Origin: Quercus robur
Taxonomy: Eukaryota; Streptophyta; Magnoliopsida; Fagales; Fagaceae
Assembly: GCF_932294415.1 (NCBI RefSeq)
Contig: NC_065545.1
Location: forward strand, 19,534,857-19,598,856
Length of the DNA stretch: 64,000 nucleotides
Direction of reading: 5' to 3'
Positions 10,529 to 62,007 of the stretch are shown one piece after another. The notes under the pieces are model-generated. The model made no database searches. It was not told the origin of the DNA and saw nothing but the letters and a program-made list of their open reading frames with translations. The number at the start of each line of letters is the position of its first letter. The stretch's first letter is position 1. The position numbers were made by a program, and so were the translations under genes.

Positions 10529-12981
10529 ATGGGTAGATTTTTTAACTTAGTTGATACCCCTAAGCATAAAGAAGAGTTCAAAAAGTACTGTAGGATTCCT
10601 AGTAACGTGTCTATAAAGCATTGTAATTTGGGGGAGTGGCATGAGAAAAGACCCACTGAGTCCATAGCGATTCCTATGATAGCATTTATTGAGGAAGGAA
10701 TGAGGATTCCTATAGGTAGGGCTACTAGGGATTTTTTGAATCTTTTTAGACTTTGCCCTACTCAGTGTGCCTTGAACATGTTTAGGATATTGGGTAGTGT
10801 AGATGCAATAAACGACAAGATGGGTATAATTCTTACCTATCACGTCATAAACTAGGTCTATAGCTACCAAAGGAATAACGAAGTGGGATACTACCTAAAA
10901 ACTAGGGTTCCTGCCGTTAGATTAATTTCTTGCCTCCTCGAGACGAACAAAGGCATGGACAAAGATTTTCTCATCGTTTCAGGGGAGTGGCATGATGGAC
11001 TTCACTGCTCGACCATAGATGGCAATCGAGGTGGGGCAGCTTAGGGACACCTTTAAGATCTTGTGTTGTTTAGGAACTAAAACACTAATATTCTATCTCT
11101 ATTTTTCTCTGTTGATCGTTTTTCTCACTTTTTTTCCTTTTTTTTTTTAGACAAAAAAGCTACTGCCAAAAGAGAAAGCTTGGTGAACTTCAATTTGTTG
11201 AACCAAGTCCTAAGATCTGAGATCTTCCTAAACCAAGACAGCCAACTCCGAGCAGTGTAGTCATCCTTGGTTTCAAACAAATTTCCACCCACTTCCAAGT
11301 TTCTAAGAACGTGATCAAGGCCAAAGACCCGCGTCTCGTATTGGTTGACATGGTTGTTAAAGGGTTCATTCGAAAGCCTCCTCCTGCTAGAACTCAACTT
11401 GTGGAACTCCCCACCCTAACTGAAACTCAACCTTCAGTCGAAGAAGTCATCTCTTCAGATGACAAGGTTGAAGCTCAGTCTGAAGAGGTCGAGGAGGAAA
11501 CCGAGGAAGAAAGTACTGAGAGCCTCGTCTACAACAAGAACTTTGAGATTCTCTACAATCGGGACGTGACCGAGGACGTAGTATCCACCTCGAGGTCGGT
11601 TACAATTGTAGTTAGTGAGGTTCAAGAGGCAGTAGAAATCTAGAGGTAATGGTGATAGAAAAGCAGTTGCCCGACCTATTGTCCTTATTGGAGTCCCACG
11701 TAGGGGGGTGCTACCCTAGAAATTCCTGTGGTACCCAAGCCTCCAACGCCTATCCCTCCTCCTCTTATCCAAACTAAACCAGCTGACAAGAAACGAAAAA
11801 GGGATAAGAAGGGAGGAAAAAGCCCTGCCGAGGAATGGGAGATTTCATAATAAACTCCTCCTGAACAAACTAAGGTTGCCAAAGTCACTCGATCTCAACA
11901 AAGGAGGAGAGGGAGAGACTTCAAAGGTGGTTTTGGAATGCCGCCCATGAGTTTCGAGCTGGAACACCCCCCCCCCTCCCCCTTAGTATTGGATGGAGCC
12001 CCCATTCCCTCAAATTCCTCAATCCACATATTTAATAATGGAAGGGCAAGCTATGTAGTCAACTCGGTTGAGCAAGCACTCCTTCTACCTCAGGACATGG
12101 CCAAGCTTCGTAATTTAAAGAAGCACGAAATGTTTCTATCCCTAAAGAGGGACTTAGCCCTAGTACACTTCCCTTCTTCTCTTATTTCCTTATTTGCTTC
12201 TACAATGTTTAACTTCTAACTCCTTCTCTTTATTCATAAATTTCTAGGCCACCCAAGCAGCACATGTGACCGAGGAGTGGGTTAACCAAGCCCTTTATGA
12301 AAAGTAAAAGGAGGAATCCAAGCGCTATGCTGCCCAAAAGGTCCAAGCCCAAACTGACAAAAAATTGAAGAAGACCTTCTTTAAGCTGTCCGAGTGTGAT
12401 AAAGCCTAGAAAAGTGTTGAGGCCTCGATTGAGAGCTCTAAAAGGCAAGCCCGAGAACAACTACGCCATTTAAGAGAGTTAGAAGGTCAACTTACTCTTG
12501 CCCAGGATAAGATTGCAGAATTGACGAATGAGCTAAAACAAAAATTTGAAGAGATGAACAAGGTCGAACAAGCAGTGTACAATCTGGAGCAGAAGGAAAC
12601 TGCGACATAAAGTCTCAGATCCCAGTTGTTTGTCGAGACTTTTGTCTTCGGACTTGGATCGAGGCTTTAAAAGCTGCTAGCGTGGACCCTTCCTCGGAGT
12701 TGAGGAATCCGGAGAAGTTGTTCTACCCCCTAGCAATCAGAGAAAAAGCACTTGCTCCAACTCCTCCCAGCACTGCTGCTCCTGCCCATATTGAAGACCA
12801 ACCTCCTGCATCTAGTGATAAAGCTCCGACAACTTCTGCTACCGCCAAGGAGACTCCTTCCTCGAACAAGGTCCCCTTTTCAGTTGAAGTTGCTATCTCT
12901 AGGCCACAACCTTTTGCTGAGGAGCAGACCACTAAGGATGCAAAGAAGGAGAAAGTACCCGAGGTCCAAAGAGCAAAATAG
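10529..12981 (+). pseudogene. Antisense gene of element A (three exons, decayed)
   Basis: Opposite in strand to gag-pol. Exon 1 (10529-11030) starts MGRFFNLVDT and contains MIAFIEEGMRIPIGRATRDF. This resembles the domain called 'putative gypsy type transposon' (Transposase_28), a name given from memory. An in-frame TAG lies at 10853-10855, after which similarity to element B continues. Intron 1 is 11031-11150 (phase 1). Exon 2 (11151-12162) includes an acidic stretch and KHEMFLSLKRDL. Intron 2 is 12163-12247 (phase 0). Exon 3 starts ATQAA, is rich in Glu/Lys/Gln (coiled-coil-like), and ends in a Pro/Ala-rich tail at 12981. Extra stops (for example near 11259, 12306, 12407 and 12607) show decay. 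Function unknown. Confidence 0.75.
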
Positions 12982-13404
12982 ATATTAGGCCGAGGGTTTT
13001 TTTTTTTACATGTGGCCACCTTTTGTACTACAGCCTCCCCTTATTGTAAAGAAGTTTGTTAGTTCATCAATGAAAAAGCTTCAGCCTATCTTTCATTGCA
13101 TACATTCTCTTTTTACTTTTTACTCATTATTTTTAGTAGTAATGTTCAACATTATATTGATATACACGACAAATTACCTTGTCTTCATGAACTTTACCAT
13201 ATATTGATGTTTGGCTTCACATACATGTCTATTTTCAACTGTCTTTAATTTTTTTTTTTTTTTAAGAGATCCTAATTCTGCAATCCAAGATATCAAGTCT
13301 TTCTAGGTTTGGTGTCATACTTGTAAAACTTGAAGGTGAGCTTTTCCAAAACTGATTATCAAAGTTCTCAAACTTGGTTGAAGTCCTACTTGTATTTATC
13401 AAGA

Positions 13405-13637
13405 AAAATACGTGTTAATTTACCCAAAGCAGGTGATCCGAGGAATCGAACCTGTTCGAGGTTTTGTTTAACCCTTAGTAACAAGTTAGGTATTAATTTA
13501 CCCATGGCAAGTGATCCGAGGAATCGTACCTAGTTGAGATTCTGTTTAACCCTTAGTAACAAGTTGGGTGTAAATTTACTCAAGGCAAGTGATCCGAGGA
13601 ATCGTACCTAGCCGAGGTTCTGTTTAACCCTTACTTA
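13405..13637 (-). repeat. 78-bp minisatellite of element A
   Basis: GATCCGAGGAATCG recurs at 13435, 13513 and 13591, a period of exactly 78 bp over about three units. Read on the element's strand, each unit holds AAACAGAAYCT and TCCTCGGATCAC, which match the 81-bp units of element B. It sits between integrase and the antisense gene's 3' end. Confidence 0.85.
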
Positions 13638-13711
13638 TATTAAAACCATTGTTAACCAAAACAAAAACAATTGTAATGCTTAATACATCTTGATTTTCCA
13701 TACATACATAA

Positions 13712-16795: not shown

Positions 16796-17820
16796 CTAAA
16801 ACCTCGGTGCCTTTCTACAGAGTTTCTCCGCTTCGATTCTATCCTCGAGCAAGGTTCCTTCTTTAAGAAATCTAACTACAGGGTCCATCCAACTTGGGCC
16901 CACTTGCGTGAAGTGTACTCCTACTAGAATCTGTGTATCATAAGCAGGAGTTGCATGGTCTTCCACGAGTATAATCCTCATAAGTTTTTCTTTACTTGAA
17001 GTGGCCAAGGCTGCTAATAAATTAGCATGAGAATTTTTACTTCGAGGAACTTGCTCCAACATAAAGGAATAGAAGTCGTCCGATAAACATTTCACCTGAT
17101 TCAAGTACCAGAGCATCCTCGGATCTTTTGCTTCAAAATCACCCCAAACCTGTCCAGCTATGAGCCTAAAATTACAATACGCCCTAACAGATTTACCTCT
17201 GAGCTCCCAAACAACAACTAACCCTGCTTGGAGGGCCTCATACTCAGCCTCGTTGTTCGTCGCTGAGAAGCCAAGCCTTAAAGATTTTCCAATGTAATCC
17301 CCTCTGGCGAGATTATCATGATTCCAATTCCTGACCCCTTTTGGTTAACCACACCATCCACAAATAACTGCCACGATTGCTGAGTTGCAATTGAACTCAT
17401 TCTTTTTGCTACTTCGGGCTTTCTTACCACCTCGAGGTCACTTAGGCCTAACTCTTCAATGAATTCTACTACCAGATTTGCGAGAATTTTCCCTTTCACT
17501 GTCGTATGAGGCAAATACTTGATGTCAAATGCACCTAGCATAGTTCCCCACTTTGCCACTCTTCCAGTGTAGTCTAATCTCCAGAGTAACGCTTGCAAAG
17601 GCAATTGGGTCAAGACGATCACCGTGTGAGCTTGAAAATAGTATGGTAGCTTCTTTGTGGCATGAATAACAACAAGGAGAGACTTCTCAAGAGGGAGATA
17701 CCTAACCTCTACCTCCTGAAGAGATTTGCTGACATAATACACTGGTTTTTGAATTCCTCCATCAACCCGTATCAGGACCAAACTTACTGCATGCTGCACG
17801 ACAACTATGTATGCATACAA
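16796..17820 (-). pseudogene. Dual RNase H region of element A
   Basis: The minus strand shows a first RNase H (YYVSKSLQEVEVRYLPLEK near 17690-17745). It is followed by a second, archaeal-type RNase H starting QLFVDGVVNQKGSGIGIMI (near 17310-17370). The second continues to about 16900 with NNEAEYEAL and HANLLAALATSS. A stop at 17278-17280 falls within it. Two RNase H domains in tandem are diagnostic of the Tat lineage. Confidence 0.82.
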
Positions 17821-18012
17821 AACCTCTTATTTCTCTGGTCTAGACAAAACTAGTGGATGGGCCAGATATGCCTTCAACTCCTTAAAAGCTTTGTCACACT
17901 CCTCGGACCAAGAAAAATCCTTCCACTTATGTAATAGCTAAAAGAATGGTTTACATCAATCAACCAACTGTGATATGAACCTATTCAAAGCCGCTGTCGT
18001 TCTAGTAAGACA

Positions 18013-18900
18013 CTAGACTTCCTTCGGATTTCGAGGAGGGTGCAAATTATGAATAGCCTTAATCTGGTTGGGGTTAACCTCAATCCCTCTATGGGTGATC
18101 ATATAACCTAAAAACTTCCTGGACCCTACACCAATAGAACATTTAGAAGCATTTAAACGCAATTTATGCCTTCTTAATATTGCAAAAATTTCATCAAGAT
18201 CTATGAGATGCTGGGACTCTTCTTTACTTTTTACCACCATGTCATCAATGTAGACCTTCACGCTCTTTTCCAATTGGTTCTCAAACATCCTCGTCACCAT
18301 TCTTTGATATGTAGATCCAGTATTCTTCAAGCCAAAAGGCATTACTCAGTTATAATTGTTTCCTGTTAGGGTATGGAAAGCCGCTTTCTCTTGATCAGAT
18401 AGTGCCAAAGGGATTTGGTGATATCCTTGAAAAGCATCTAGAAAACTTATTCTAGGGTGCCCAAATGTTGCATCTACTAGCTAATCTATCCTCAGAACAG
18501 GAAAGGGATCCTTAGGGCAAGCTTTATTAAGGTCTGTAAAGTCCACGCACATTCTCCATTTCCCCAACTTCTTTCTTACCACTACGGTGTTGGCTAGCCA
18601 CTCGGGGTAAAATATCTCCTTTATCACCCCTGCTTATTTAAGCTTCCGAACCTCCTCCTTTATTGCCTCGACGTGCTCTTTAGATGAATTCCGAGTTTGC
18701 TACTTCTTCAGAATGGCCTTGGGGTTAACATTTAAATGGTGACAGATGAACTTTGGATCAACCCATATGCTTCATATGCACTTCAAGCAAAAATATCCAG
18801 ATTTTTCTTCAAAAAATCTATTAACTACCTTTTATCTTCTGATGGGAGTTGAGTTTTGACTTGGAAATACCTTTCTTCATCCTCTTCAATGAGAATTTTC
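18013..18900 (-). pseudogene. Reverse transcriptase region of element A
   Basis: The clearest part (18013-18342) reads MPFGLKNTGSTYQRM, then the catalytic box VYIDDMVVKSK and the thumb-side FLGYMITHRGI. Upstream fragments (to about 18700) match VCVDFTDLNKA-type motifs of element B but are broken by stops. In gypsy enzymes the YIDD box is normally functional; the surrounding frame is not intact here. Confidence 0.82.
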
Positions 18901-19208
18901 TCTAACTCCTCACATGATACTGAACAGTCCGAGGAGACTAGCAACCCAGGCTGTGATTGCTATAAGGCTGGTCTTATCTCCGAAGAACTCACCTCGGACA
19001 CACGGTGGCTAACCACTGCTACCATACACTGTCTGGCCACTACTTGGCATCCTACCAGCTCGGCCACTCCTTCATCAATAGGATGTTTCAACTTTACATG
19101 CAAAGTTGAGGACACTACCCCTATAGCGTGTAGTCATGGCCTAACAAGGATGGTCATATACAAAGAGAAAGCATCCAACACTATAAAATCCACACTCACT
19201 ATCTTATC

Positions 19209-20961: not shown

Positions 20962-20963
20962 AT

Positions 20964-21721
20964 TGTGGCAGGTAAAAAATATTGCTAACAAAGTCAACGG
21001 TTTTAGACGTGTTACTTTTTGCTCACACAATTAATTTTTAGAGATGGGATGCAAGGTCAACCTTTAAGTACCCATTTTGAGATAAATAATGACGTTGGGA
21101 CTACGCTCAAGTGAGATGTGAATGTATTCAATTATAAAAAGCCTTGAAATGGCTAAGTGTTTGTCGTCGGGTTTAGTCCAAGGATCAGGTACAATTGAGT
21201 AGTCTCTCTCCCTTCTTTTTATCAAAAAATCCTCCCCTTGATCTAGGTACTTCTGGGCTTTATATAGTTAGTCAAAATGTATCTGGACTCTACATTTGGA
21301 GGGTTAGGATCAAACTTTCTTGATACTTTTCCCATTAAGGCCTTGCTAGAAAACTTCTACACTAAGGTATGAGCTGTGTGTACACTATTCAACGTCACTT
21401 CCCCATTAATGCGGTCAGCTAAGTTGTTGCAGTGCATTTAATGCAGGGGGCTGGTTGCTTTGTCCTTCATCTTTCTTCTCTTTTTTGCTAAATGCCAATT
21501 TACTTTTTTCACCCTTGGTTTGCACTGTGCTACCTCTAGCTCTGACTCTTGACTTTTCGAGGTTAAGTAGGTGTCCTCAAGACCCTTGTCAACTGTGCCA
21601 TTTTGCCCCTGCATGAGTTAGGTGGAAACTTTCTGAGGACATTCTGCCAATATTTCTCAAGGTTTCATTCCTCGGAAATGCCCTATCCATCTTACCAGTT
21701 GTTTTGGATCCTCGTCCCCCA
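20964..21721 (-). repeat. 5' LTR of Gypsy element A
   Basis: Right copy of the repeat, 758 bp, from TGTGGCAGG to TCCCCCA. It shares its whole length with 9303-10067. Confidence 0.88.
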
Positions 21722-21772
21722 TAGTAGTAGAACAACATTTTTTTTAGGACTAAACAAATATGGATGAACTAA

Positions 21773-36994: not shown

Positions 36995-37329
36995 ATAGCC
37001 CCTCAAAATCCTACTTCCCTACCTTGTGGTTAGGGAGGAGGGTTTTGATGATGTTAGGCCCAAACCATGACTTGCCCAACTCAAAATTTCTTTAATGTCG
37101 GGGTTTCTTCGTTTGCATGGGGGGCGCGCAAAATGGTGAGACATCCCTCTAGGTTTTCTCGTGCGGCGTCCTTAACGTTTTAGTGTCCAAGGCGCGCCAT
37201 TAATACGTTTCCTTCACGAGGTTATTCAAACCTTGCGGTTGCAGATGGTGTTGGAAATTGTGCCAGGACCGTCTTGTCTGTAGCACTTATTGGAAACTTG
37301 CATGGATTAAATGCCTCCGGTTTGCTCTC

Positions 37330-38030
37330 TATATAAATAGGATAGGGGGTCATTCCCCTTGCATATAAACCCTTCTGCTCCCTTCAGAATCACAATCCTT
37401 CCGCCATACTCACAATCTCCATTTCCAGTGCCATCCACCCTCAGAGCAATATGTTTGAGGCATGGGTGGGGATGAGGGATCTTCACCCGCTTCAGAGGCA
37501 CCGAATCCTTCCAAAACTCAGGGTGTTGCGGTCCGGACAGGGGAGACATAGACTCAAGATGATCTTTCGTTCGGATAAGGTGGGGATGGTATCTCTGCCT
37601 CTTTCAGTCAAAATCCGAAGCAGGCACTGGTCGCATCAGATTCTTGGTGCGTCAGAAGTAAGGTTTTCCGTCATCAGCACCGTCTGCTCTATCGGAGGCG
37701 TGGCTAACATGGAGGCTCATCAACTTCCGGCTCCCTGCACCTTTTCTTCAACGGTGCCAGCCTCAAGTTGGGCTCCCTGCACCTTTTCTTCAACGGTGCT
37801 AGCCCTAAGTTGGATTCTTTTGCTGCCTGAGTCATAGGCATGTAAAAGTATTGAGGAATGGTCTCCTTAGACAACATTTTGGAATGGCAGCATCCCTCTT
37901 CTCTGCACCTCTTCTTCGGCTTTTTCTTCACTCTCTTGTATCTTTTCTTTCCGCTTATGTAGTTAGCTTTTAGTATAAGCTTATTCAAGCTTTTTCATTG
38001 TACGTTGTACTGTTTCTTTGTGCTAATAAA
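37330..38030 (+). other. Antisense transcription unit of element C
   Basis: A plus-strand TATA box (TATATAAATAG, 37330-37340) and an AATAAA signal (38025-38030) frame about 700 bp, opposite to the element's own strand. The place matches the antisense gene promoters of A and B. The first long frame (37451-37837, 128 codons) has no similarity to the A/B antisense protein and no domain I recognise. It includes a 42-bp tandem duplication (37728-37811, CTGCACCTTTTCTTCAACGG). It may be a non-coding or degenerate transcript. Confidence 0.5.
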
Positions 38031-38379
38031 AGGTGAATTTGTTTCCCTCTAAATACTTTTCTTTTCTGCGGCAATTACTTTGTGAATGGGTATGCTATAT
38101 GTGTATTTTCCTTTAATGATACATAGGACAGGAAACCTTGTGACAAAAACCTACCAATTTGAACCTATTGAAACTATCAAATATAATAACACCAATCAAT
38201 AGCAAATTAAACTTATGAGACTAACCAAGATAACAGTTGAGTGTACCGTAACGCGCGTGAAGTAGGTGCCTGAGAATGAGGAACCCAAAATAATCCATCC
38301 GAGAGGGCTGCCGAGTAGTGTGGAACTTTGGCCGTGTTTTCAATAATTCCTGGCCTCTGATCCGAGGACCGAGGTTCGA

Positions 38380-38915
38380 TTGTACCGGGTTGTGCCCAAA
38401 ACTTGTATTATTTATATATTTTTTTATTTTAGTAGTTGGTTTCCCCATAGGCTTGAGTCCGAGGACCATGCAAGGCCTTGGTTCTGTCCAAAACTTGTAT
38501 TTTTTCTTTGTAATAGTTGGTTTCCCCATAGGCTTGAGTCCGAGGACCATACAAGGCCTTGGTTCTGTCCAAAACTTGTATTTTTTCTTTGAAGTAGTTG
38601 GTTTCCCCCTAGGCTTGAGTCCGAGGACCATACAAGGCCTTGGTTCTGTCCAAAACTTGTATTTTTTCTTTGAAATAGTTGGTTTCCCCATAGGCTTGAG
38701 TCCGAGGACCATACAAGGCCTTGGTTTTGTCCAAAACTTGTATTTTTTCTTTGAAGTAGTTGGTTTCCCCATAGGCTTGAGTTCGAGGACCATACAAGGC
38801 CTTGGTTCTGTCCAAAACTTGTATTTTTTCTTTGAAGTAGTTGGTTTCCCCATAGGCTTGAGTTCGAGGACCATACAAGGCATTGGTTCTGTCCAAAACT
38901 TGTAGTTTTTCTTTG
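38380..38915 (-). repeat. 81-bp minisatellite of element C
   Basis: TTCCCCATAGGCTTGAG starts at 38441, 38522 and 38603 and continues to about 38850, a period of exactly 81 bp over six to seven units. The minus strand reads GGACAGAACC and GGTCCTCGGACTCAAG, alignable to the A and B units. Because 81 is a multiple of three, both strands stay open for about 200 codons; these are not genes. Confidence 0.92.
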
Positions 38916-39145
38916 TATTTATTTATTTATTTTTCGAAGGTTAGCCCCTCGACCAAGGTGGGGAGAGTTAGCTTGAGGCTGGAAGCCCCTAGAGCTGCTC
39001 GTGCCATCGGCGCTGCGAGGCGTAGCCCCTAGCGGAAGTTTATGTCGGAGCAACAACTGCATGTCGCTGGAAATGGAGGAACCTTCGCAGACCTCCGCTT
39101 GATAGAGGCTTGACTCCACCGCTACCTGTGCCAATGCGCAAGCCT

Positions 39146-39163
39146 TCCCACAGACGGCGCCAA
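39146..39163 (-). other. Primer binding site of element C
   Basis: The minus strand reads TGGCGCCGTCTGTGGGAA right after the 5' LTR, identical to the site in element B (52680-52697). Confidence 0.88.
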
Positions 39164-39164
39164 T

Positions 39165-39785
39165 TGTAGGGACACGATTTTTAACGACCCAAGAATGACA
39201 TTGGGTTCGTATGTAATGGGCCCGAACAATATAATTTGTAGAGAGTGGGTTTGAAAGGCTTGCCCTTGGTTGCCGGGCAACGGTCTGGTCCTGATTTTAT
39301 GGAAGCTCATACAAAGGTAGGTTTGGCCTGAATAGCTAAGCCTTACATCGATGTAGCTTGAAGGGTTTGAGTCCTCGGACTTAGTTCGAGGAGCATCACA
39401 TTCTTCCCATTCTTCCTTTTTGTAGGATCTGCCCCCCCCCCCCCTCTTGGCTTTCGTTTCCTTTTATACTCGTATTTCCTTCCCCTTTTGTGTCCACGTG
39501 TCAGTTTCGCTTTTGAGGTATGGACTTGTCCCATCAATCCGTACATCTGAGTGGTTGGGAAAGGTTAAATAGCATGGTCTGAAGTATGGGCCTGTCAGAT
39601 GTAGGGCTCCATACTGCGGTGTCGGCATCCTTTTCCTTGTCCTACCCCTGTACGGAGTTTGTCCTTTTCTTCAGGCGTTTTGTGAGGTGTTGAGCGTGAG
39701 ATCGTCCTCGACAATAGGGCTCCTTGGCCTGGGCTTTGGGCCCTAAATGTAAAGTGGGCTGGGACCTCAAACTTTGGGCCCCACA
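39165..39785 (-). repeat. 5' LTR of element C
   Basis: Same length (621 bp) as the left copy and about 98% identical by eye. Confidence 0.92.
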
Positions 39786-40056
39786 TTAATGATGTTAAAA
39801 CGAGTAATTGCACAAGCAATTACATTTTGTATATTCAGTCTTTATGTTTAGAAAGACTTTTACTTAAATTTAACCAGATCGAAGTGAACCGTACACTTAT
39901 ATAGCTTAATAGGAGCGTAATGACAATAAATGTTATATGCTTTAAATTTTAGATATTACGAGTTTGAAATCATATATACATTTTTTAATAAATTTGGATT
40001 TAGAACATGTACTCTTAACCTAAACTTGTCTTTTTCCATTATGTAATTGCACCAAA

Positions 40057-45810: not shown

Positions 45811-46268
45811 CAGGTTTAGGTTTAGTTTTTGGAATATAGGTGAGCAAATTCCAATCTTCACTAAATGAGAAGAAGATTTTATTTTTGCGACACATCAATT
45901 CTTTAAGCGTGGAGTTACCACAATTGCTCAAAATTTAGGGAATATAATAGGAGAATTGATTGATTCTGCTGGTGCAAGTCAAATTACACCGTCTATGTCC
46001 TCAATGGCACGTAATTTGGGGGATACAATCAAATATGGAGATAGGGTTTGGGAACTTTTTTAATATGTGGTAAAGAAAGCATGTTTTGATGCCGTATACC
46101 TTCAATTCAGAAATATTGCTTACACAAAATTAAAGAGACTCAATTATATTATAATAATTTCTTGAAACATGCAAACAGCTTGTTATTAGGATTTATCGTG
46201 GCCCCAAAAATAAGTTTTTGGGTTCAAACAGTTTATTTTAATAAATTTTGGGGTACAGATAGGATTCG
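45811..46268. repeat. Segmental duplication, copy 1 (3' flank of hydrolase gene)
   Basis: Matches 63506-64000 from CAGGTTTAG(GTTTAG)TTTTTGGAATATAGG to ACAGATAGGATTC at roughly 90% by eye. It includes an open stretch of 64 codons (45869-46063) ending ...DTIKYGDRVWELF that I do not recognise. Copy 2 keeps its last 50-odd codons open. The stop codon of the hydrolase gene lies 13 bp further right. Confidence 0.85.
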
Positions 46269-47598: not shown

Positions 47599-47630
<32 letters not shown>

Positions 47631-51741: not shown

Positions 51742-51864
51742 TTAAATCCTTTTCTTTATTTAAATAATTTATTTGGATCATTTAAATAAAAATGCCCACA
51801 TTTTTCGTCAGTAAAATTATGTTTTTTCCAATTCTAAAAAAAGAAAAAGAAAATCTATGATACT

Positions 51865-52677
51865 TGTAGGAGTGGTAGGCCCAGTAATGCATATCTATGT
51901 ATATATTGGGTCGGGGGCCCAATTCGAGGATATTAAGTAGTCCGAGGACAGGAAAACACTGTTAGAGGAGTCCATGTTAATGAATGAAAAGGTGAGATAT
52001 GGTCATGAGGGTCTAAAAGAGTGATTCGAGGAGGGATGCTTCATCGGTTGAGCGAAGTCGAGGTCAGAAGGTGTGGTCTACCATTAAAAGAAACGTTCTG
52101 GACAATTCCACTGTTGAGGATAAGTATCAAGAAGGAACATGACAGAGAGAGGTTATGAAATATCTAAGAGAAAGCTGCTACCACCGCATTAAATGCTCTG
52201 CAACTAACTCTCTGGCTACATTTATGTGGAGAAAACCCCTGAACTGTGCTGCCTAGGCTGCCCCAACTCACAGAGGGCCTGAGAGGGTGTCTGATGAGAC
52301 AAACACTCAAGTAGTGGCCTGGATGATCAACAAATGAAGGGCCAATATCATCTAAAGGGAGATATATAATGTAAAAGACCCTCCATAGAAGGGGGATTGG
52401 AGAATTAAGAGAGAATTACTATAGTAATAAGAACTGTACTTGTAATCAATTTCAAGATCTATATATAAGAATTGATTTCCTCGGACTGCGCCAAGGACAA
52501 TTTTCATTAGATACAACTAGTCTATTTTCACTTTATTGTCATTTAGATTCACTATAATTGCTACCCAACCTATTAGAACCTAGTTTTCCAACCCACTCTC
52601 TACAAATTCATTCAATTGGGCTCTTTGGGCCTAGATCCTTTTAACTTTTAGGTTAGGGCTCAAATTCAGTCCCTACA
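51865..52677 (+). repeat. 5' LTR of Gypsy element B
   Basis: Starts TGTAGGAGTGGTAGGCCC and ends TCCCTACA. TATA box TATATATAAG lies at about 52459-52469. Confidence 0.92.
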
Positions 52678-52679
52678 AT

Positions 52680-52826: not shown

Positions 52827-54057
52827 GTGCATACCACCCATACTAGTAGGAGCCACTCTCGAGGTGGGAGTCATATCTCTCATGAGGAAAACACTAGAGT
52901 CATGCAGCTGGAAATTGATTGTTTGAAGAGGAAGTTGCACCACAAACGGCGAAGGCGAACTCCCTCCAACTCTGATTTTTCTTCTGGTGTTGAGGGGGAT
53001 GGTAGCTACAGACCCAGGTCAAGAACTCCCCTCCAGTGAATCCTTTTCTTGTGATGAGGACTACCACCGGGAGCGTAGGAATAGGAGCACGTCTCATAAA
53101 GGCCTGGGAAATGATGCTATGACCACTGTGTTGAACCAAATTTCCAGGTTGCCTTTCACACGTAGAATTGAATGAGGAAAACATACTCGGCGGTTCACTT
53201 AGCCAGCGTTAACCATGTACAATGGTCGAACAGATCCTATGGAGCATGTGAGCCACTTTAACTAGAGAATGGTTGTACACTCTAAGAATGAGGCCTTGAT
53301 GTGTAAGGTGTTCTCATCCAGTTTGGGGCATGTGGCAATGAGATGGTTTGATGGCCTGAGAGTAGGTTCTATAGATTCCTTCAAGGAACTTACTCGAGCG
53401 TTTGGATCTCACTTTGTCACATGCAGTAGGGTTCCTCGGCCCTTAGATTACTTACTATCTATGGCCATGCAAGAAGGAGAGACCCTGATAACGTACTCAA
53501 ACAGATACTGGAAGATGTTCAATGAGATAGATAGTGATTTTGATGATTTGGCCATAAGAACTTTCAAGGTCGGCCTACCTGTCGAGCATAGTTTAAGGAA
53601 GTCTTTGATTGGAAAACCTGCTAACAGTGTGTGTCAACTTATGGACCGAATTGATAAGTATAAGCGGGTCGAGGAAGATAAACAACAGGGGAAAGGGAAA
53701 GCTAAGGTTATCCCTCAAGAAAGGAGGGATTTCAGGTCGGATCAATACAACAATAACCGGCCCCGGCGAGACTTTGCTGGGCAATCGGGGTCTGCCACTG
53801 CTCAAATGGTTAACACAGTATTCCGAGAGCTAGTACACCAAGTCTTGGAGAAAATCAAGAACAAGTCATTCTTTAAGTGGCCAAATAAGATGGGAGGTGA
53901 CCCCATGAAGCGCAATCAAAGCCTTCATTTCCAGTACCTCCAGGACCAAGAGCACACTAAAGAAGACTGTAGAACTTTGAGGAGTCATCTGGAGCAACTG
54001 GTCAGAGAATGGAGGCTGAAACAATTTTCGCATCAGCCCAATGGACCAGGAGGTTAG
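52827..54057 (+). pseudogene. Gag of element B, frameshifted
   Basis: An N-terminal piece (from 52827) with coiled and Arg-rich sequence ends at 53039. The main gag core is open at 53269-54057 (262 codons), with MRWFDGLRVGSIDSFKEL and SRVPRPLDYLLSM, then a basic C-terminus (NNNRPRRDF). The two parts lie in different frames with stops between 53040 and 53268. Confidence 0.82.
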
Positions 54058-54331
54058 ACAAGATCAAGATTTAAAGAGAATGCTTTTTCCAAAGCCCCTT
54101 TGGGCATCATCAATGTCATCTTCGCGGCTTGGGGAGAACTGGTTCTCACCCCTCCAGGGTGATGTTTGTAGCCTGGCCACTTGCCGAGGACTATAGACCT
54201 GAGTTGAAGAGGGCTAGAATGGAGAACCGGCCATCGATGAGTTTCTCTAAAGAGGACAAGTTTGGAACCATACAACCACGTGATGATGCGCTAGTGGTCA
54301 CCCTCAGGATAGGGGGTATGATGTTAAGAGG

Positions 54332-54646
54332 ATGATGGTGGATCAAGGTAGTGGGGCAGAGATTATGTACCCTGATTTGTACAACGGACTAAGCTTGAAA
54401 CCTGAGGACTTGACAACTTATGATTTGCCTCTAGTAAGCTTCGATGGGAAAGTTGTTATTTCGAGGGGCCAGATTCGACTACCTGTACAAGTAGGATCAG
54501 AGGTGGTAAATGTGGATTTCATTGTAGTGGATGCTTATTCTCCCTACATGGCCATTGTGGCAAGACCTTGGCTTCATGCCCTGGGGGCCGTTTTCTTCAC
54601 TCTGCATTTGAAGGTGAAATATCCATCTGGGATCGATCGGATTTAG
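54332..54646 (+). pseudogene. Retropepsin-like protease of element B
   Basis: An open stretch of 104 codons holds MMVDQGSGAEIMYPDLY (active-site region; in this group the loop reads DxGS(G/S)A) and the second-strand motif AIVARPWLHALGA. A stop at 54644-54646 cuts it from the reverse transcriptase. Confidence 0.8.
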
Positions 54647-54763
54647 GAGCTGGTTAGGAGCCAGTTCGTGGCTAGACAGTTCTTGGTTGCTGCAATAATG
54701 CATCAGCTAGGAATGGAGTCCTCAACCTCTGCTGAGAGGAGCTTATAGAAATCAAGGACTTCG

Positions 54764-55675
54764 ATGTTGTCTGCGAATGCAGTGTCAAAGGGGGCAACAT
54801 GTGAGGAGTTAGAGAAAATTATTATTGGTGATGATGTGGAGAAGTTCTTTCAGGTCGGAGCTCAACTGCTTCCCCAAGAGAAGGAAGAGCTGATAGTGTT
54901 CCTCAAAAGGAATATTGATGTGTTAGCATGGAGTGCTTGCGAAGCACTTAGGGTGGATTCAAACTTCATCTGCCATCATTTGAATGTTAGTTCGTCTGCC
55001 ATCCCTAAAAAGCAATCACCTCGGCACTCATCTAAGGACCATTCTGATGCTATCAAGGATGAGGTGACCAAACTTAAGCAGAATGAGGCTATCAAAGAGG
55101 TGTTTTACCTCGAATGGCTAGCCAATACTGTAGTGGTAAGAAAAAAGAGTGGAAAGTGGCGAGTATGTGTGGACTTCACAGATTTGAACAAGGCCTGTCC
55201 AAAGGACCCTTTCCCTATGCCTTGGATAGATCAACTAATGGATGCAACTGTAGGCCATCCTTGGATGAGTTTTTTGGATGCCTTCCATGGATACCACCAA
55301 ATACCACTGGCTCTAGATGATCAAGAAAAGACAGCTTTTGTCACTCTTACTGGAAATTACCACTACAAGGTAATGCCCTTTGAATTGAAGAATGCAGGGT
55401 CTACCTATCAGAGGATGATGATCAGGATGTTTGAGCCACAGTTAGGCAAAAATATTGAAGTTTATATAGATGATATGGTGGTAAAGAGTAAGATGGTGTC
55501 CAAGCACCTAGGAGACCTCGGTAATATTTTTGAAATATTGAGGAAACATAAACTACACCTCAATGCTTCCAAGTGCTCCATTGGCGTGGGATCAGGCAAA
55601 TTTCTAGGGTATATGGTCACTTATCGTGGAATTAAGGTCAACCCTGATCAGGTTAAGGCAATTAACAGTTTGTAG
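54764..55675 (+). pseudogene. Reverse transcriptase of element B
   Basis: 303 open codons: WRVCVDFTDLNKACPKDPFP, then FLDAFHGYHQIPL, then the catalytic YIDD box at 55463-55474 and FLGYMVTYRGIKVNPDQ. A TAG at 55673-55675 ends the frame inside the connection to RNase H. The catalytic residues are present. Confidence 0.87.
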
Positions 55676-55867
55676 CTACCTCAGAATCCTAAAGAAGTCC
55701 AGAAGTTAACTGAAATAATCACTGCCCTGAACTGGTTTATCTCTCGGTCAGCGGACAGGTGCTGACCCTTCTTCCAATTGCTGAATAAGTGGGAGGGATT
55801 TGAATGGACCCAAGAGTGTGCCTCTGCCTTCTAGCAGCTCAAGGAATACCTTTCCCGGCCACCTATT

Positions 55868-56730
55868 ATGTCTAGGCCCGAGGTGGATGAGGTCTTGTTT
55901 GCATACATTGCTGTGGCTTCTCACGCCATGAGCTTAGTGCTGATACAGGTTGACAATGGCGTGCAAAGGCCAATATACTATGTGAGCAAGTATTTTCATG
56001 AAGCAGAAGTTCATTACTTACCACTGGAGAAGGCCATTTTGGCAGTAATACATGCTACACGTAAACTACCCCACTACTTCCAATCCCACACAGTTGTTGT
56101 TTTAACCCAACTTCCGCTTCGATCACTACTTCGGAGTGTTGATTATACTGGGAGGATTTCCAAGTGGGGTACGATCCTAGGGGTTTTTGATTTCAAGTAT
56201 ATGCCTCGCACCTCTATAAAAGGTCAGGTCCTCGTAGATTTGGTGGCCGAGTTTGCTGAATCCCCGTTGGATGAGGAGGCTAAAAAGAAGGGCGTGGATG
56301 GAAAATTAGTTGGCATAATTTCCTTGCAAGAACCTTTATCCTGGAGGGTATACGTTGATGGTGCATCAAATCACAAAGGCTCTAGAGTGGGGCTGGTTTT
56401 AATATCTCCTAAAAAGATCACTATTAAGAAATTCTTAAAATTGGGCTTCTTGGCCACAAACAATGAAACTGAATATGAAGCTCTATTAGTGGGGATGACC
56501 ATGGTTTAGAAAATGGGAGGAAAAGCAATGGAGATCTTCTCGGATTCAAGGTTGGTGGTTGGCCAAGTAAAAGGAGAGTTAGAGGCCAGGGATGTGAGAA
56601 TGCAAAGATATTTAAGTCAGGTTAAGTACTTGTGATCAGGGTTTGAGTCTTTCAACTTACTGCAAATCCCGAGAAGTGGAAACACGCATGTTGATTCCCT
56701 AGCCACTCTTGCAACCTCCTCGGCACAAGG
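55868..56730 (+). pseudogene. Two RNase H domains of element B
   Basis: The first RNase H is at about 55868-56270 (PIYYVSKYFHEAEVHYLPLEK). The second, archaeal-type domain starts WRVYVDGASNHKGS (about 56341) and runs to about 56730, with a TAG at 56507-56509. The pair supports Tat lineage membership. Confidence 0.83.
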
Positions 56731-56812
56731 CTTGCCTTGGTTTATCCTTGTTGAAGACTTGTGCAAGCCTGTTGAGATGAATAGGGAGATGGTTTAGATT
56801 CATCAAATTAGG

Positions 56813-58062
56813 GTGGGACCTAGCTGGATGGACCTTAAAGTACTATTCCTGAAAGAGGATATCTTGCCTGAGGGGAAATCTGAGGCTGACAAAGTGCGAA
56901 GGAAGGCTCCTCGGTTTTGGTTGTCCGAGGAACAAAAGTTGTACAAGCGTTCTTTCTCTGGGCCATATTTGCTATGTATACATCCCGAGGCATCAGAGCT
57001 ACTCCTGGAGGAGTTATATGAAGGGATTTGTGGCAGCCATATAGGAGGCAGATCCTTATCTCACAGGGCCCTTACTCAGGGATATTGGTGGTCGAACATG
57101 CAGAAGGAAGCCCAAGAGTACGTGAAGAAGTGTGACCAATGTCAGAAATTTGCCCCAAACATTCACCAATCAGGGGGTGTCCTTAATCCTGTGTCCGACC
57201 CTTGACCTTTTGCTCAATGGGGCTTGAATATTGTAGGGCATTTCCCTAAGGCAGCAGGAAATAAGAGATGGTTGTTTGTCGGCACGGATTACTTCACCAA
57301 GTGGGTTGAAGTTGAACCATTGGCAAATATCAGGGATGTGGATGCTAAGAGATTTGTTTGGAAAAACATTGTCACTCAGTTTGGGATCCCCATACCCTCA
57401 TCTCGAACAATGGTCTTCAGTTTGATAGCAAAGCCTTCAAGAGGTATTGTTGTGACCTGGGAATAACAAATAGGTATTCCACCCTGGCTTATCCACAGGG
57501 AAATGGACAGGTCAAGGCTGTCAATAAGGTCATATTGAATGGACTCAAGAAGAGGTTGGATGATGCTAAAGGAAAGTAGGTGGAAGAGCTGTCACACGTC
57601 CTTTAGACATATTGGACCACACCTCGTAGATAAACAGGGGAGACACCCTTTTCAATGACTTATGGAGTCGAGACTGTTATTCCTCTGGAGATTGAATTCC
57701 CAACACTGAGAACAAGTTCTTTCACTCCGAGCAACAATGATGGGCTGTTAAGGAAGAGCTTAGACTTAATTGAAGAGCGAAGAGAAAATGCCATGGTCTA
57801 ACTAACGTATTACCAACACAAGCTCAAGTAAGGTTATGATGCCAACGTAAAGCTAAGGCCATTAGTGCCTGGAGACCTGGTATTAAGAAAGGTTTTGGGT
57901 ACTGCTAAGAACCCAGCATGGGGAAAGTTAGGGCCCAACTGGGAAGGGCCATATCACATCACCTCAGTGGCTGGAATAGGTACATATAATCTTAAAGATC
58001 TAGATGAAAATGTTGTACCACGCCCCTGGAATGTAAACAACATGAGAATGTATTATTATTAA
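56813..58062 (+). pseudogene. Integrase of element B
   Basis: The HHCC zinc region is at about 57030-57150 (HIGGRSLSHRALTQGYWW...CDQC). The core starts GTDYFTKWVEVEPLANI (57278 on). The codon at 57406-57408, where the second catalytic Asp of the D-N-G motif belongs, is AAC (Asn). The frame changes near 57205-57224, again near 57360-57470, and has stops before the C-terminal LGPNWEGPYHITSVAG region ending at 58062. Confidence 0.82.
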
Positions 58063-58124
58063 TGAAAGTTTTCTCTACCATATTTTGGTTTATTACATTA
58101 TGCGTTATGCGTCCTACTATTTAT

Positions 58125-58866
58125 TTGAATATCAAACAGAACATTGGTCATGCCTAGCTCCTCGAACTACATACCTTGAGTAAATTGACATTTTAAGTTA
58201 TTTTTCTAAGTATTAAACAGAACCTTAGTTATGTCTAGCTCCTCGGACCACATACTTTGGGTAAATTAATACTTCATATTATTTTTCTAAGTATCAAATA
58301 GAACATTGGTCATGCTTGGCTCCTCAGACCACATACCTTGGATAAATTGATATTTTAAATTATTTTTCTAAGTATTAAACAGAACCTTAGTTATGCCTGA
58401 CTCCTCGGATCACATACTTTGGGTAAATTAATACTTCATATCATTTTTCTAAGTATCAAACAGAACCTTGGTCATGCTTGACTCCTCGGACCACAAACCT
58501 TGGGTAAATTGATATTTTAAGTTATTTTTCTAAGTATTAAACAGAACCTTAGTTATGCCTGGCTCCTCAAACCACATACTTTGGGTAAATTAATACTTCA
58601 TATCATTTTTCTAAGTATCAAAAAAAATCTTGGTCATGCCTAGTTCCTCGGACTACATACCTTGGGTAAATTGATATTTTAAGTTATTTTTCTAAGTATC
58701 AAACAGAACTTTGGTCATGCCTGGCTCCTCGGATCACATACCTTGGGTAAATTGATATTTTAAATTATTTGTGTAAGTGTTAAATAGAATCTTGGTTATG
58801 TCTGGTTCCTCGGACCACATACCTTAGGCAAACTAATACTATCTGTTATTTATCTAAGTCTCAATA
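58125..58866 (+). repeat. 81-bp minisatellite of element B with 162-bp dimer order
   Basis: The landmark CTAAGT recurs at 58206, 58287, 58368, 58449, 58530, 58611, 58692, 58773 (variant) and 58854, always 81 bp apart, about nine units. Units carry AACAGAACYTTGGTCATGCC and CTCCTCGGACCACATACC. Through most of the array units alternate between a GATATTTTAAGTTATT form and an AATACTTCATATCATT form, giving a 162-bp higher-order repeat. Confidence 0.95.
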
Positions 58867-59398
58867 AAACAAGCCATGCTAAATGGCAGACATCTTCATT
58901 GTAATAACATGATAAAATAGACACTCATAAGCACCACTTAAAGCATTTGAAAGTATATCTATGATCTGTTTAAGAATTGATTATCATCTCCAGTTCCTTA
59001 AACTTACTGATAGGTGGAGAATTGGGTAGAGCCTGACATGAATGGGTGCTCTACCATTATGTATGTTTTTAAGGTTAAGGTTACACTTTGTTGAGATCGT
59101 GGACTTAGTAAGTTTAACCTGTTCTGTTGCTGTTCATATGAGGGTGGTAAGTATGCTACCACTTATGCAGTAGTTGTATCTCATTGTCACGTTGGCTAAG
59201 TATTAAGTGAAACATAAACTGTATTTGGATCCATATAAACATCACAAGTATAGAAGAAAAGCTTGCAATTATCATTAAACCAAGCCTCTGAAAAAGGCAA
59301 GTAGATTACAAAAGGTTGAATGAATTACAGAGCTAAGAAACAAAAACAACAGTTAAAAAAAGGGGGGGGGGGGGGAGGGAGAAAACAAAAACAACAAC
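58867..59398. other. Element B interior between minisatellite and antisense gene
   Basis: No coding sequence seen. A G run lies at about 59360-59375. Confidence 0.5.
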
Positions 59399-62007
59399 TC
59401 ATGGTTTCATCCTTATTACAAGTTTTTCCTTAGGAGTCTTGGCAGGCTGAGTGGTTGTTGTTGCTAAGGATGCCGAACCCTTACCCTTAAGGTCTTCCTT
59501 GGCAGGGATAGGGAAAGTTGCCAAAACCAGCTTGTGGCTTTGAGAAACCACCCCTCCCTGGGAAGAATCCTTAGGTGCGTCCGAGGTCTTTGTCATCTCG
59601 GGGGCGACCTCCTTAGGGACTTCTTTCTCCTTGTCAAATACGCCGGTTTGCTCTGCCCCTTTATGAGGATTGTTGGGAGGAAGAGGGTCCTTAGTCAGAG
59701 CCTCTTCAACATGGCTTGTGATGTTGGGGGCTGCATCATCCTTGGGGGCTGTGGAGCCTGGTGCCCGGATTGCAGGGGGTAGTATACATTTTTTGCTCTT
59801 CTAATTGCAGAAGAGGCCTCAACCCCTGCCAGGTTGAGGGTCTCATTCCACACCTGAAGGCAGTATACTCTACACACCCTTGAGACCTCAACCTTAAGGG
59901 CCCCCTCGGGCTCGGCTACCCCCACGTCATAGCCATCTTGTTCGGCCTATTCCTTGGCCTTCTTAGCATCCTCCAGCTTTTTCCTTAACAATTTGATCCA
60001 CTCCCTGGCAGCGGTAAGCTCGTCCTCGGCTTGGTGGAGTTACTTACGCTGGGTCTCGGCTTGCCTCTCCGCCCCTTCCAACACCGCCTCAGCACTTTTC
60101 CACTCCTTCTCGGCCTTAAGGAGTTTGGCGTTCAGCACTTTCACTCCCTTCTTGGCCACGTTGAAGGCCTCAACAGTAGCAACCCTTCTGGCCTCCTCCT
60201 CCTTCATCTGTAGGTAAGAAATATCCATCAACTCCTCAGCTCTGAAACTGGTTTGGATAGCCTGCAAAAGAAACTTAGTGAGTGAGCAAAGGAAAGAGTA
60301 AAAAAAAAAAAAAAAAAAAATCTTATTTATTAATGAATAATGGACTTATCTTGAAAAACTCACCATAATGAGGTCTCTCTTTAGACTTAGAAACACCTTG
60401 TGTTTCCTCATGGTCCTCAGATCAGCCATGTCATCGGGTAATTACAGAGCTTGCTCTACAACGTCTGCTACTTACCCAGCCTTTCCCTGTTGGAAGTCCC
60501 TGATTGAGGAGTTCGTAGGGAGAGAGAATCCGTCTAACACCAGGGGGGATTCCAGTTCGAAACCTTGGTGCATAGATCGCATTCCTTGTCTCCTGGTGCT
60601 CCATCACTTAGGGACCTCGTCTGAGTGGTCTTAGCCACCTTAGCCCCTTTTTGGGGCTCGTTCTCCTTTGAAGGGATACCTCAGCCCTCTTCTACCACGT
60701 CCTTCCCCTTCTGCTCCTGTTTCTACTTTTTGTCTACTAGATCGGGTTGAGAGTCATGGGGGGGTAGGGAGGGAAAGAGGTTTAGCTTGGCCGGTCGCCT
60801 TGGGTGACCTGCCTCTAACCTGGGACTTCATTACCTCTATAAGGAAAGCCTTGGGCTTTCGTTGTATTCCCATGTCTTCTGGGATAGAATAATCTTCTTG
60901 GGAGTGACTAGCTTATGCAGGAATATGGTGGCCAAGGTCACCAGTTGGGGTTTCAGGGGATAAAGGTTGGTTGAAGACTTCGAAGTTGTCTTCCGAATCA
61001 GAAACTTCAACGACCTCTTCCTCTTCCTTAATTGTAAACTGGGACGAGGTTGCCTCTTCCTCGGCACTGCGTTGGAATGGCAATGCTACTTTTGGTATGC
61101 CTTCTGGGATAGGATCGATGGTGAGGAAACTCGGAACGACAACACTTATTTGGTGCAGGTAGGGATCTTTTGCCTTTATCTAGCACTTTGGCGCTTGAAA
61201 ACTGGACGAGATTAGGGTGTAGTTTAAGATTAGGTGGGCCGCTCTTAGTTGGCCATCCTTGTGAATAAACACCTCGGCTTGGAGGATCTTATCTAGGCTT
61301 TGTTGGTTGATGAGATTGAAATTTGGAATAGCAACTTTCTTATCTGCAAGACCATTTGGAAAACAAAAAATATCATTAGCAAAAAATGGCACAAATCAAA
61401 GGAAAAAATTCAATTGCAAGCATAAACATAGGCAAATGGGTAAAGAATATGTCAAGAGAAAAAGAGGTGATTTTTCAAGTAATGAACCTAGACCTAAAAT
61501 CCCACCTGGTTTCCCCTCTTTCGTCGGGTAAGGGAGGCCATCGTGCCACTCCCCTAAAACGATCAAGAAATCCTTATTCATGCCCTTGTTGGACTCAAGG
61601 AGGCACAAGATGAGTCTAACCTCCAAGTACCAAGTTTTTAGGTAATACCCCTGCTCCTTTAAATTGTGAAGGTTATAGACCTAGTTGACATCGTGATGGG
61701 TAAAACCTAAGCCCATTTTCTCGTTGAGGGCATCGACGCTGCCTAAAATCCTAAACATATTTGGGGCACATTGGGTGGGAACTAATCTGTGAGCCCTAAG
61801 GTAATTCCTAGTGACGGTGCCCATGGGAATTCTCATCCCTCCCTCTATAAAGGCAATCATCGAGATTACCACTTCTTCCCTTTGCCTTTTTTCATGCCAT
61901 TTCCCTTCCTTACAGTATCTAATGGAGACTTTTAGCGGGATTCTATATTGAGCTTTAAAGCTCTCTATATTCTCCGCGGAGTCTACCAGGTAAGCAAATC
62001 TACCCAT
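59399..62007 (-). pseudogene. Antisense gene of element B (three exons)
   Basis: Opposite to gag-pol. The ATG at 62007 opens MGRFAYLVDSAENIESFK, aligned with the element A start; a longer upstream frame (to 62181) has no counterpart. Exon 1 (62007-61506) contains MIAFIEGGMRIPMGTVTRNY and an in-frame TAG at 61683-61681. Intron 1 is 61505-61344 (phase 1). Exon 2 (61343-60364) starts with DKKVAIPNFNLINQ and ends HKVFLSLKRDLIM. Intron 2 is 60363-60262 (phase 0). Exon 3 (from 60261) starts AIQTSFRAEEL, runs through an Ala/Glu/Lys-rich coiled coil, then AGVEASSAIRRAKNVYYPL, and ends near 59399. Other frame breaks exist. Function unknown. Confidence 0.75.

What the first reader, a model, noticed from the sequence alone, without database searches (positions are those of the whole stretch)
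10529..62007. Spliced antisense gene conserved between two diverged Gypsy elements
Elements A (10529-12981, plus) and B (62007-59399, minus) each carry, opposite to gag-pol, a gene with the same order: MGRF start, MIAFIE(E/G)GMRIP block, intron in phase 1 before DKK, FLSLKRDL block, intron in phase 0 before A(T/I)Q, coiled coil, SS(E/A)(L/I)R...(L/V)(F/Y)YPL. Intron lengths differ (120 and 85 bp against 162 and 102 bp) while positions and phases agree. Extra open frames downstream of pol, sometimes antisense, are known for Tat-lineage elements. A spliced antisense gene with its own promoter suggests an unstudied accessory function.
Basis: partly seen in the sequence, partly recalled or inferred. 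Interest (0 to 1): 0.85.

Follow-up and report, generated by a model that had tools for sequence, protein, structure and literature searches.

The report
Spliced antisense gene in plant retrotransposons
Two old plant jumping genes carry, on the strand opposite to their replication genes, the remains of a gene that looks split by introns and was kept by natural selection while the elements were active; the gene family was known, but I found no description of its split structure or of the short DNA motif that may be its target.

Summary

In 42 copies (the two in the window included) splice dinucleotides are mostly kept (donor GT 34/38 and 32/34, acceptor AG 28/38 and 26/30 readable), and the frame under purifying selection switches at the introns as splicing predicts in 10 of 12 pieces. 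The gene is a diverged relative of the Transposase_28 (TRP28) antisense gene of Retand retrotransposons. Canonical TRP28 genes in the same genome also have a phase-1 intron after the domain and a phase-0 intron before the coiled coil. The papers I could read treat these genes as plain ORFs.

New lead: A and B are strewn with a short motif (CCGAGGA), in arrays and LTRs; a second TRP28 lineage is rich in another (GGACGA). This resembles the target motifs of VANC anti-silencing proteins. No RNA or protein evidence was available.

The parts
10529..11030 (+). Element A antisense gene, exon 1 (diverged TRP28 domain); in-frame stop at 10853-10855
11031..11150 (+). A intron 1, GT-AG, phase 1, 120 bp
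11151..12162 (+). A exon 2 (net frameshift inside; first stop at 11258)
12163..12247 (+). A intron 2, GT-AG, phase 0, 85 bp
12248..12981 (+). A exon 3 (coiled-coil-like; stops from 12305 on; true 3' end uncertain)
9302..10071 (-). A 3' LTR
20963..21727 (-). A 5' LTR
16796..18345 (-). A pol remains: RT, RNase H, and a second RNase H-like domain (RVT_3)
13409..13642 (+). A tandem array, three 78-bp units each holding TCCGAGGA
61506..62007 (-). Element B antisense gene, exon 1; in-frame stop at 61683-61681
61344..61505 (-). B intron 1, GT-AG, phase 1, 162 bp
60364..61343 (-). B exon 2 (8 in-frame stops)
60262..60363 (-). B intron 2, GT-AG, phase 0, 102 bp
59399..60261 (-). B exon 3 (coiled-coil-like; stops; true 3' end uncertain)
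51864..52679 (+). B 5' LTR
62536..63350 (+). B 3' LTR
53266..57205 (+). B gag-pol remains (gag, protease, RT, RNase H, integrase zinc domain)
58026..58973 (-). B tandem array, about nine 81-bp units homologous to those of A; CCGAGGA 6 times, each in gene orientation

Best explanation
The feature is the antisense accessory gene of Retand-type Ty3/gypsy elements, in a diverged TRP28 lineage. SHOWN from genomic sequence: three exons and two GT-AG introns at fixed places and phases, purifying selection in the spliced frame across copies over most of the exon length, decay in the two window copies, and homologous genes in a second, canonical TRP28 lineage with an intron of the same phase at each of the two corresponding places. 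INFERRED: the gene is transcribed from a promoter between its ATG and the 3' LTR and spliced to give one protein with an N-terminal TRP28 domain and a C-terminal coiled coil. Because the introns are antisense to the genomic RNA, they cannot be spliced out of the RNA that is reverse-transcribed; this would explain why they are kept over long times. MOST LIKELY JOB (inferred, about 0.3 on its own): a nuclear factor that acts on the element's own DNA, with the lineage-specific motif in the arrays and LTRs as candidate binding site, to promote its expression or counter silencing.
For: 42 copies, window copies included: donors GT 34 of 38 and 32 of 34 readable, acceptors AG 28 of 38 and 26 of 30. 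Intron 2 begins GT in 27 of 28 and ends AG in 25 of 28 copies while neighbouring positions vary; its lengths (53-153) are 10, 8 and 10 in the three classes modulo 3 (counted by hand), so the frame is not kept through it. dN/dS of exon 1 falls from 0.86 (2 pairs) to 0.13 (373 pairs) with distance; other frames 1.09 and 1.19 (48 copies; 784 of 1128 pairs, the rest saturated). pN/pS in the predicted frame: exon 1 0.29 and 0.34 (before and after codon 109), exon 2 0.19/0.36/0.31 (A group) and 0.27/0.58/0.24 (B group), exon 3 5' part 0.24/0.31; other frames of these pieces 0.72-1.68. Profile comparison of exon 1 (7 copies) with canonical TRP28 (5 loci): probability 94.3, E 1e-7, 98 columns. Second lineage, read by eye: donor GT at the intron-1 place in 8 of 8 loci, acceptor AG in 5 of 8, phase 1; a later intron of phase 0; exons under selection in their own frames. 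Motif: TCCGAGGA 27 times in the window against 0.71 expected, each inside A, B or a third element.
Against: No RNA: splicing and promoter are inferred. No processed (intronless) copy was found: 0 of 43 listed matches of a 120-nt junction probe spans the junction, so there is no sequence-level proof of a spliced message. GT/AG is not exceptionally conserved beside the gene itself: 10-38% of exon-1 dinucleotides are as well kept. In 2 of 12 pieces, the 3' parts of exon 3 (5 and 7 copies), the predicted frame is not the best (0.71 and 0.89), and in the middle of B exon 2 it is weak (0.58, 4 copies). Pfam's cut-off for TRP28 is not reached by the window copies. Nothing tests DNA binding. GGACGA is also 2.7-fold enriched in A/B loci (58 against 21.3), so the motif sets are not exclusive, and ordinary stretches of the window reach high raw k-mer scores too.
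Confidence: 0.72

Rival explanations
1. Same spliced gene, but the protein serves nuclear import, particle assembly or integration rather than acting on the element's own DNA as a regulator.
For: Grande gene23 product is nuclear (cited in PMC7264820); that review itself raises a role in moving the pre-integration complex. A coiled coil fits a structural partner.
Against: Motif enrichment in noncoding parts of A and B (13 independent places against 1.6) would need another cause.
Confidence: 0.35
2. The antisense transcript matters as RNA (dsRNA, silencing or interference) and the protein does not.
For: Suggested for antisense ORFs in PMC7264820.
Against: Amino-acid level selection in one frame that switches at introns; opposite-strand frames of exon 1 carry 7.5-14.5 stops per copy.
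Confidence: 0.04
3. The exons are separate short ORFs, not spliced together, as ORF surveys count them.
For: No RNA; in one locus of the second lineage the first intron happens to be open, giving a 582-residue frame (L087).
Against: Exon 1 ends in phase 1 and exon 2 resumes in the matching phase in both lineages; intron 2 lengths are free modulo 3; splice sites are mostly kept. The ATG of exon 1 is present in 37 of 42 copies; starts in exons 2 and 3 were not looked for.
Confidence: 0.06
4. The stop at codon 109 shared by A and B is functional (readthrough or a short 108-residue product).
For: Same stop at the same codon in both window copies.
Against: 35 of 50 copies have a sense codon there; the 15 stops are of three kinds; other codons open to the same kind of decay also turn to stops; selection is about as strong after it (0.34) as before (0.29).
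Confidence: 0.02
5. A captured host gene fragment or chance ORFs without a role.
For: Both window copies are dead.
Against: 40 scored places each for A- and B-type exon 1, selection, and a position shared by diverged elements.
Confidence: 0.02

Closest known systems
Antisense TRP28 (Transposase_28, PF04195) ORFs of Retand LTR retrotransposons (Vicient 2025, PMC11963269)
   Same: Position between pol and 3' LTR, antisense, TRP28 domain, tandem arrays nearby; Smc-like and other antisense ORFs in the same region.
   Different: Described there as ORFs found with ORF Finder; the word intron does not occur. Here one gene of three exons (at least four in the second lineage). TRP28 ORFs under 600 nt noted there for some species could be first exons (inference).
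Grande gene23 of maize (Gomez-Orte 2013; not held, seen only as cited in PMC7264820)
   Same: Antisense gene in the 3' region; own promoter and nuclear product reported.
   Different: Whether gene23 is spliced could not be read; no sequence comparison was possible.
VANC anti-silencing proteins of Arabidopsis VANDAL transposons (Hosaka 2017, PMC5735166; abstract and passages)
   Same: Works-like only: element-encoded accessory protein; short family-specific motif dense in the element, tandemly arrayed in one orientation.
   Different: DNA transposon; no relation was tested. Binding and hypomethylation are shown for VANC and untested here. Motifs here also lie in coding parts.
Ogre gag-pol intron (passage in PMC6317226)
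   Same: Introns in a Tat-clade element.
   Different: That intron is in the sense gag-pol message.

Membership tests
Retand lineage (Tat clade, Ty3/gypsy) | LTR element with gag-pol of gypsy type | tested here: met
   (full domain set in B only)
Retand lineage (Tat clade, Ty3/gypsy) | Additional RNase H between RNase H and integrase | tested here: inconclusive
   A has RVT_3 downstream of RT_RNaseH, but no integrase match was found in the A ORFs scanned; in B the domain was not found in the ORFs scanned
Retand lineage (Tat clade, Ty3/gypsy) | Place in an RT tree with reference elements | not tested
   no reference RT sequences at hand
Retand lineage (Tat clade, Ty3/gypsy) | Antisense TRP28-type gene between pol and 3' LTR | tested here: met
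   (as diverged TRP28)
TRP28 / PF04195 | Score above Pfam's curated cut-off (26.2 bits) | tested here: not met
   A 14.4, B 19.8 bits; 6 of 7 copies with an open exon 1 match at E<=1, the one whose score is printed has 20.3 bits, best E 0.00019. So filed as a diverged relative, not as a Pfam member
TRP28 / PF04195 | Homology to over-cut-off members | tested here: met
   profile-profile probability 94.3, E 1e-7, 98 columns, against 5 loci found by PF04195 over its cut-off
VANC-like anti-silencing system (works like) | Family-specific short motif dense in the element, in tandem arrays | tested here: met
   with the reservations given (specificity is not strict)
VANC-like anti-silencing system (works like) | Protein binds the motif and lowers DNA methylation | not testable with these tools
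   needs EMSA, ChIP, bisulfite sequencing

The most novel reading that the evidence does not exclude
The spliced antisense gene of Retand elements encodes a sequence-specific factor that binds a short motif scattered through, and tandemly arrayed in, its own element, and shields the element from silencing: a retrotransposon counterpart of VANC, with protein lineage and motif changing together (CCGAGGA in the A/B lineage, GGACGA in the canonical TRP28 lineage). It would also give the hypervariable 3' tandem arrays of these elements a purpose.
Probability: 0.2. Interest if true: 0.88.

Novelty: new variant of a known kind. Interest (0 to 1): 0.62.

Why it matters
TRP28 genes are reported from 97% of recently active Retand clusters of flowering plants (PMC11963269), with no known function. 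If they are spliced multi-exon genes, ORF-based surveys have counted exons as separate ORFs and missed diverged members, and expression studies must look for spliced antisense mRNA. Introns that the element's own replication cannot remove give a clean mark for telling antisense mRNA from genomic RNA. The pairing of motif and protein lineage makes a concrete, cheap test of function possible, for the protein and for the unexplained tandem arrays.

Tried and rejected
Functional stop at codon 109: rejected. Opposite-strand coding as the cause of the selection signal: one reverse frame shows a shadow (0.44) but carries 7.5 stops per copy. Processed copies as proof of splicing: 0 of 43 listed matches of the B junction probe spans the junction, 40 of 135 candidates scored; the A probe was not searched. 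Structure of the 108-residue piece: AlphaFold model useless (mean pLDDT 42.8, 2 sequences), so no fold search. Solved structures: no hit at E up to 1. A conserved TATA box: not established. Intron 1 as a faster-evolving control: in the 25 closest pairs it differs about as much as, or less than, synonymous sites. Exon-only BLAST queries cannot show where similarity ends, so they are not used as evidence for the edges. Papers on Grande gene23, Tat extra ORFs and Retand are not held. A raw k-mer score alone proved a poor test, since CCCCGC in window 1-9250 scores higher than the motifs; hence the count of places with unlike flanks.

Rows left out before counts: in exon-1 selection tests 3 of 51 copies with too many gaps, and 344 of 1128 pairs with saturated dS (A against B is one of these); codons with stops or gaps; copies covering less than 70% of a piece. 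In splice counts, sites with no hit or extrapolated over 15 nt: 4, 4, 8 and 12 of 42 for the four sites (no hit: 2, 4, 6, 7). In the intron table, introns of 230 nt or more: three copies whose intron 1 is 810, 1257 and 2564 nt long. K-mers were ranked among those passing filters on raw count and letters.
Full report
WHAT IS THERE. The window (from an unnamed 786-Mb assembly in 42 contigs) holds two Ty3/gypsy elements in opposite orientations: A (LTRs 9302-10071 and 20963-21727, 90.5% identical, minus) and B (LTRs 51864-52679 and 62536-63350, 89.7%, plus). On the element strand B shows Pfam matches to gag, protease, RT, RNase H and an integrase zinc domain; A to RT, RNase H and a second RNase H-like domain. 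Both copies are broken: the same exon-1 codon is a stop in both, B exon 2 has eight stops, A exon 2 shifts frame, exon 3 of both has stops.

IS IT MORE THAN CHANCE. Exon 1 of A found 304 candidate places in the genome and exon 1 of B 1278, of which 40 each were scored. I fetched 20 of each list with about 3.1 kb from the ATG on and with A and B had 42 copies. Donor 1 is GT in 34 of 38 readable copies, acceptor 1 AG in 28 of 38, donor 2 GT in 32 of 34, acceptor 2 AG in 26 of 30. Intron 2 is 53-153 nt long, starts GT in 27 of 28 and ends AG in 25 of 28 copies, while the positions next to these vary; its lengths fall 10, 8 and 10 into the classes modulo 3 (my count from the list). Intron 1 is 118-211 nt in 33 copies and 810, 1257 and 2564 nt in three more. 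In one search a probe joining the two exon edges matched 43 times, never across the junction. As a caution, 10-38% of dinucleotides inside exon 1 are as well conserved as the splice dinucleotides.

SELECTION. With 48 of 51 exon-1 copies (784 of 1128 pairs; the rest saturated), dN/dS (Nei-Gojobori) in the gene's frame is 0.86 for the closest pairs (2 pairs), then 0.36, 0.25, 0.19 and 0.13 with rising distance; the two other frames give 1.09 and 1.19 overall. This is the pattern of neutral decay after insertion on top of selection between active lineages. Piece by piece the lowest pN/pS is in the predicted frame in 10 of 12 pieces: exon 1 before codon 109 0.29, after it 0.34; exon 2 start 0.19 (A group) and 0.27 (B), middle 0.36 (A, in the frame that follows the shift in A) and 0.58 (B, 4 copies), end 0.31 and 0.24; exon 3 5' part 0.24 and 0.31. 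The selected frame changes at each intron as splicing requires. The two failures are the 3' parts of exon 3 (5 and 7 copies): the predicted frame gives 0.71 and 0.89 and another frame 0.51 and 0.49. This could come from frameshifts in A and B, but it leaves the end of the gene open.

THE SHARED STOP. At codon 109, 35 of 50 copies have a sense codon and 15 a stop, of three kinds; two other codons of the same residue are stops in 4 of 51 and 5 of 45 copies, and several glutamine codons show the same decay. The excess fits deamination in a plant methylation context (established knowledge, not measured here). I see no sign of a recoding site.

WHAT FAMILY. Pfam finds only Transposase_28 (PF04195) in the window pieces scanned, in exon 1 and below its cut-off (14.4 and 19.8 bits against 26.2); 6 of 7 copies with an open exon 1 match at E up to 1. 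PF04195 itself has 4149 candidates in this genome; 150 were scored, each over the cut-off. Eight of these loci, and a ninth fetched later (L087), form a second lineage with canonical TRP28 sequence. Exon 1 of A/B (7 copies) and this lineage (5 loci) align profile to profile over 98 columns (probability 94.3, E 1e-7). I therefore call it a diverged TRP28 relative. The second lineage is also split. Read by eye: donor GT at the first intron in 8 of 8 loci, acceptor AG in 5 of 8, phase 1, shortly after the TRP28 domain; another intron of phase 1 not seen in A/B; and one of phase 0 before the coiled coil; L087 shows the same. Its exons are under selection in their own frames (0.11-0.22 against 1.07-1.91 in other frames; 3 to 7 of 9 copies per exon). 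That the first and last introns correspond to those of A/B is inferred from order and phase; the residues beside them are too diverged to align. I did not check which way pol runs in the second lineage.

WHAT IS IN PRINT. Vicient 2025 (PMC11963269; parts 1-3 of 5 read) finds TRP28 antisense ORFs in 97% of Retand clusters, with Smc-like and other antisense ORFs besides, using ORF Finder; 'intron' does not occur in it. The 2020 review (PMC7264820; parts 1-2 of 3) reports an own promoter and nuclear product for Grande gene23 and asks that spliced antisense transcripts be looked for; 'intron' does not occur. Neumann 2019 (PMC6317226; passages) finds PF04195 in 23% of Retand elements and counts eORFs of at least 250 codons, a rule that a 167-codon first exon fails. 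A sunflower study of additional ORFs (PMC11728184; passages) has no 'antisense' or 'intron'. The listings of searches (only the first rows of those with many hits) showed no paper on introns of this gene; the primary papers on Grande, Tat extra ORFs and Retand are not held, so priority cannot be claimed.

A LEAD TO FUNCTION. The array units of A (78 bp) and B (81 bp, read on the gene strand) are homologous (local score 62; best of 200 shuffles 24). The array of a third element at 36371-39788 is not clearly homologous to them (21 against 25 with A, 25 against 23 with B), but all three share TCCGAGGA. This 8-mer occurs 27 times in the window against 0.71 expected (most in 100 shuffles: 3): 8 in A, 12 in B, 7 in the third element, none elsewhere. 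Counting only places with unlike flanks, CCGAGG ranks first of the 6-mers passing the filters in the three elements together (45 places, 6.3 expected), in A alone (19; 2.4), in B alone (21; 2.7), in noncoding parts of A and B (13; 1.6) and in their gene regions (24; 3.7); in the third element alone it is second to the overlapping CGAGGA. With the arrays left out, CGAGGA (A) and CCGAGG (B) still lead. In the arrays all 4 (A) and 6 (B) copies of CCGAGG point the way of the gene. In 40 other A/B loci TCCGAGGA occurs 31 times (2.6 expected), in 8 second-lineage loci 0 times (1.0 expected). The second lineage has another top 6-mer, GGACGA: 48 places, 8.9 expected (8 loci), and 23 places, 1.5 expected, in L087. 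This is carried mainly by L081, L082 and L086 (31; 3.8); among L079, L080, L083, L084 and L085 the top is TCGTCA (26; 5.6) and GGACGA comes fifth (18; 5.1).

Controls for the motif. Best 6-mer scores of A, B, L087 and L082 (11.9, 15.5, 19.9, 10.1) exceed the best of 60 dinucleotide shuffles each (6.6, 5.7, 6.3, 6.7), but real stretches elsewhere in the window reach raw scores of 31.4 (CCCCGC), 18.3 (GAGAGA) and 11.5 (A-run). By places with unlike flanks the rest of the window reaches 4.8 for 6-mers and 9.0 for one 7-mer (6 places, 0.4 expected), against 15.3 and 18.0 for the motif. GGACGA is also raised in A/B loci (58; 21.3 expected), and part of the motif places lie in coding sequence.

Hosaka 2017 (PMC5735166; abstract and passages; and passages of PMC10398659) shows that VANC proteins of VANDAL transposons bind a short motif that is dense, tandemly arrayed in one orientation and different between related families, and cause loss of DNA methylation. 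The likeness is in arrangement only. Together with the reported nuclear location of gene23 and the DNA binding predicted for TRP28 (PMC11963269), it makes 'acts on its own element's DNA' the best working idea, at about 0.3, with the narrower anti-silencing reading at 0.2.

VERDICT. The finding is real and well read. As a kind it is known (antisense TRP28 genes of Retand elements); the split gene structure, seen in two deep lineages, and the motifs are the parts I did not find in print. RNA is the missing evidence.

Noticed in passing
window 36371-39788: Short LTR element (LTRs 36371-36997 and 39162-39788, 98.1% identical) with an 81-bp array carrying the CCGAGGA motif; a 29-bp stretch at an LTR end matches the 5' LTR end and primer-site region of B in reverse orientation: probably a young non-autonomous relative.
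   Followed up: partly
window 13409-13642, 58026-58973, 38336-38983: Tandem arrays of A and B are homologous although the elements have diverged widely; the third array shares TCCGAGGA with them but no clear wider homology.
   Followed up: yes
L079-L087: Second TRP28 lineage rich in GGACGA; one sub-lineage leans to TCGTCA.
   Followed up: partly
window 1-9250: CCCCGC occurs 16 times against 0.3 expected; not explained.
   Followed up: no
window 293-5863: Another LTR-like pair (293-592 and 5564-5863, 92%) with ORFs between; element not classified.
   Followed up: no
window 45890-46128 and 63622-63860: 239-bp direct repeat, 88% identical, the second copy just outside the 3' LTR of B.
   Followed up: no
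L065 and L066 (G000:C4, about 240 kb apart): Two copies with 98.6% identical exon 1 and 99.3% identical intron 1; a segmental duplication or recent pair.
   Followed up: no
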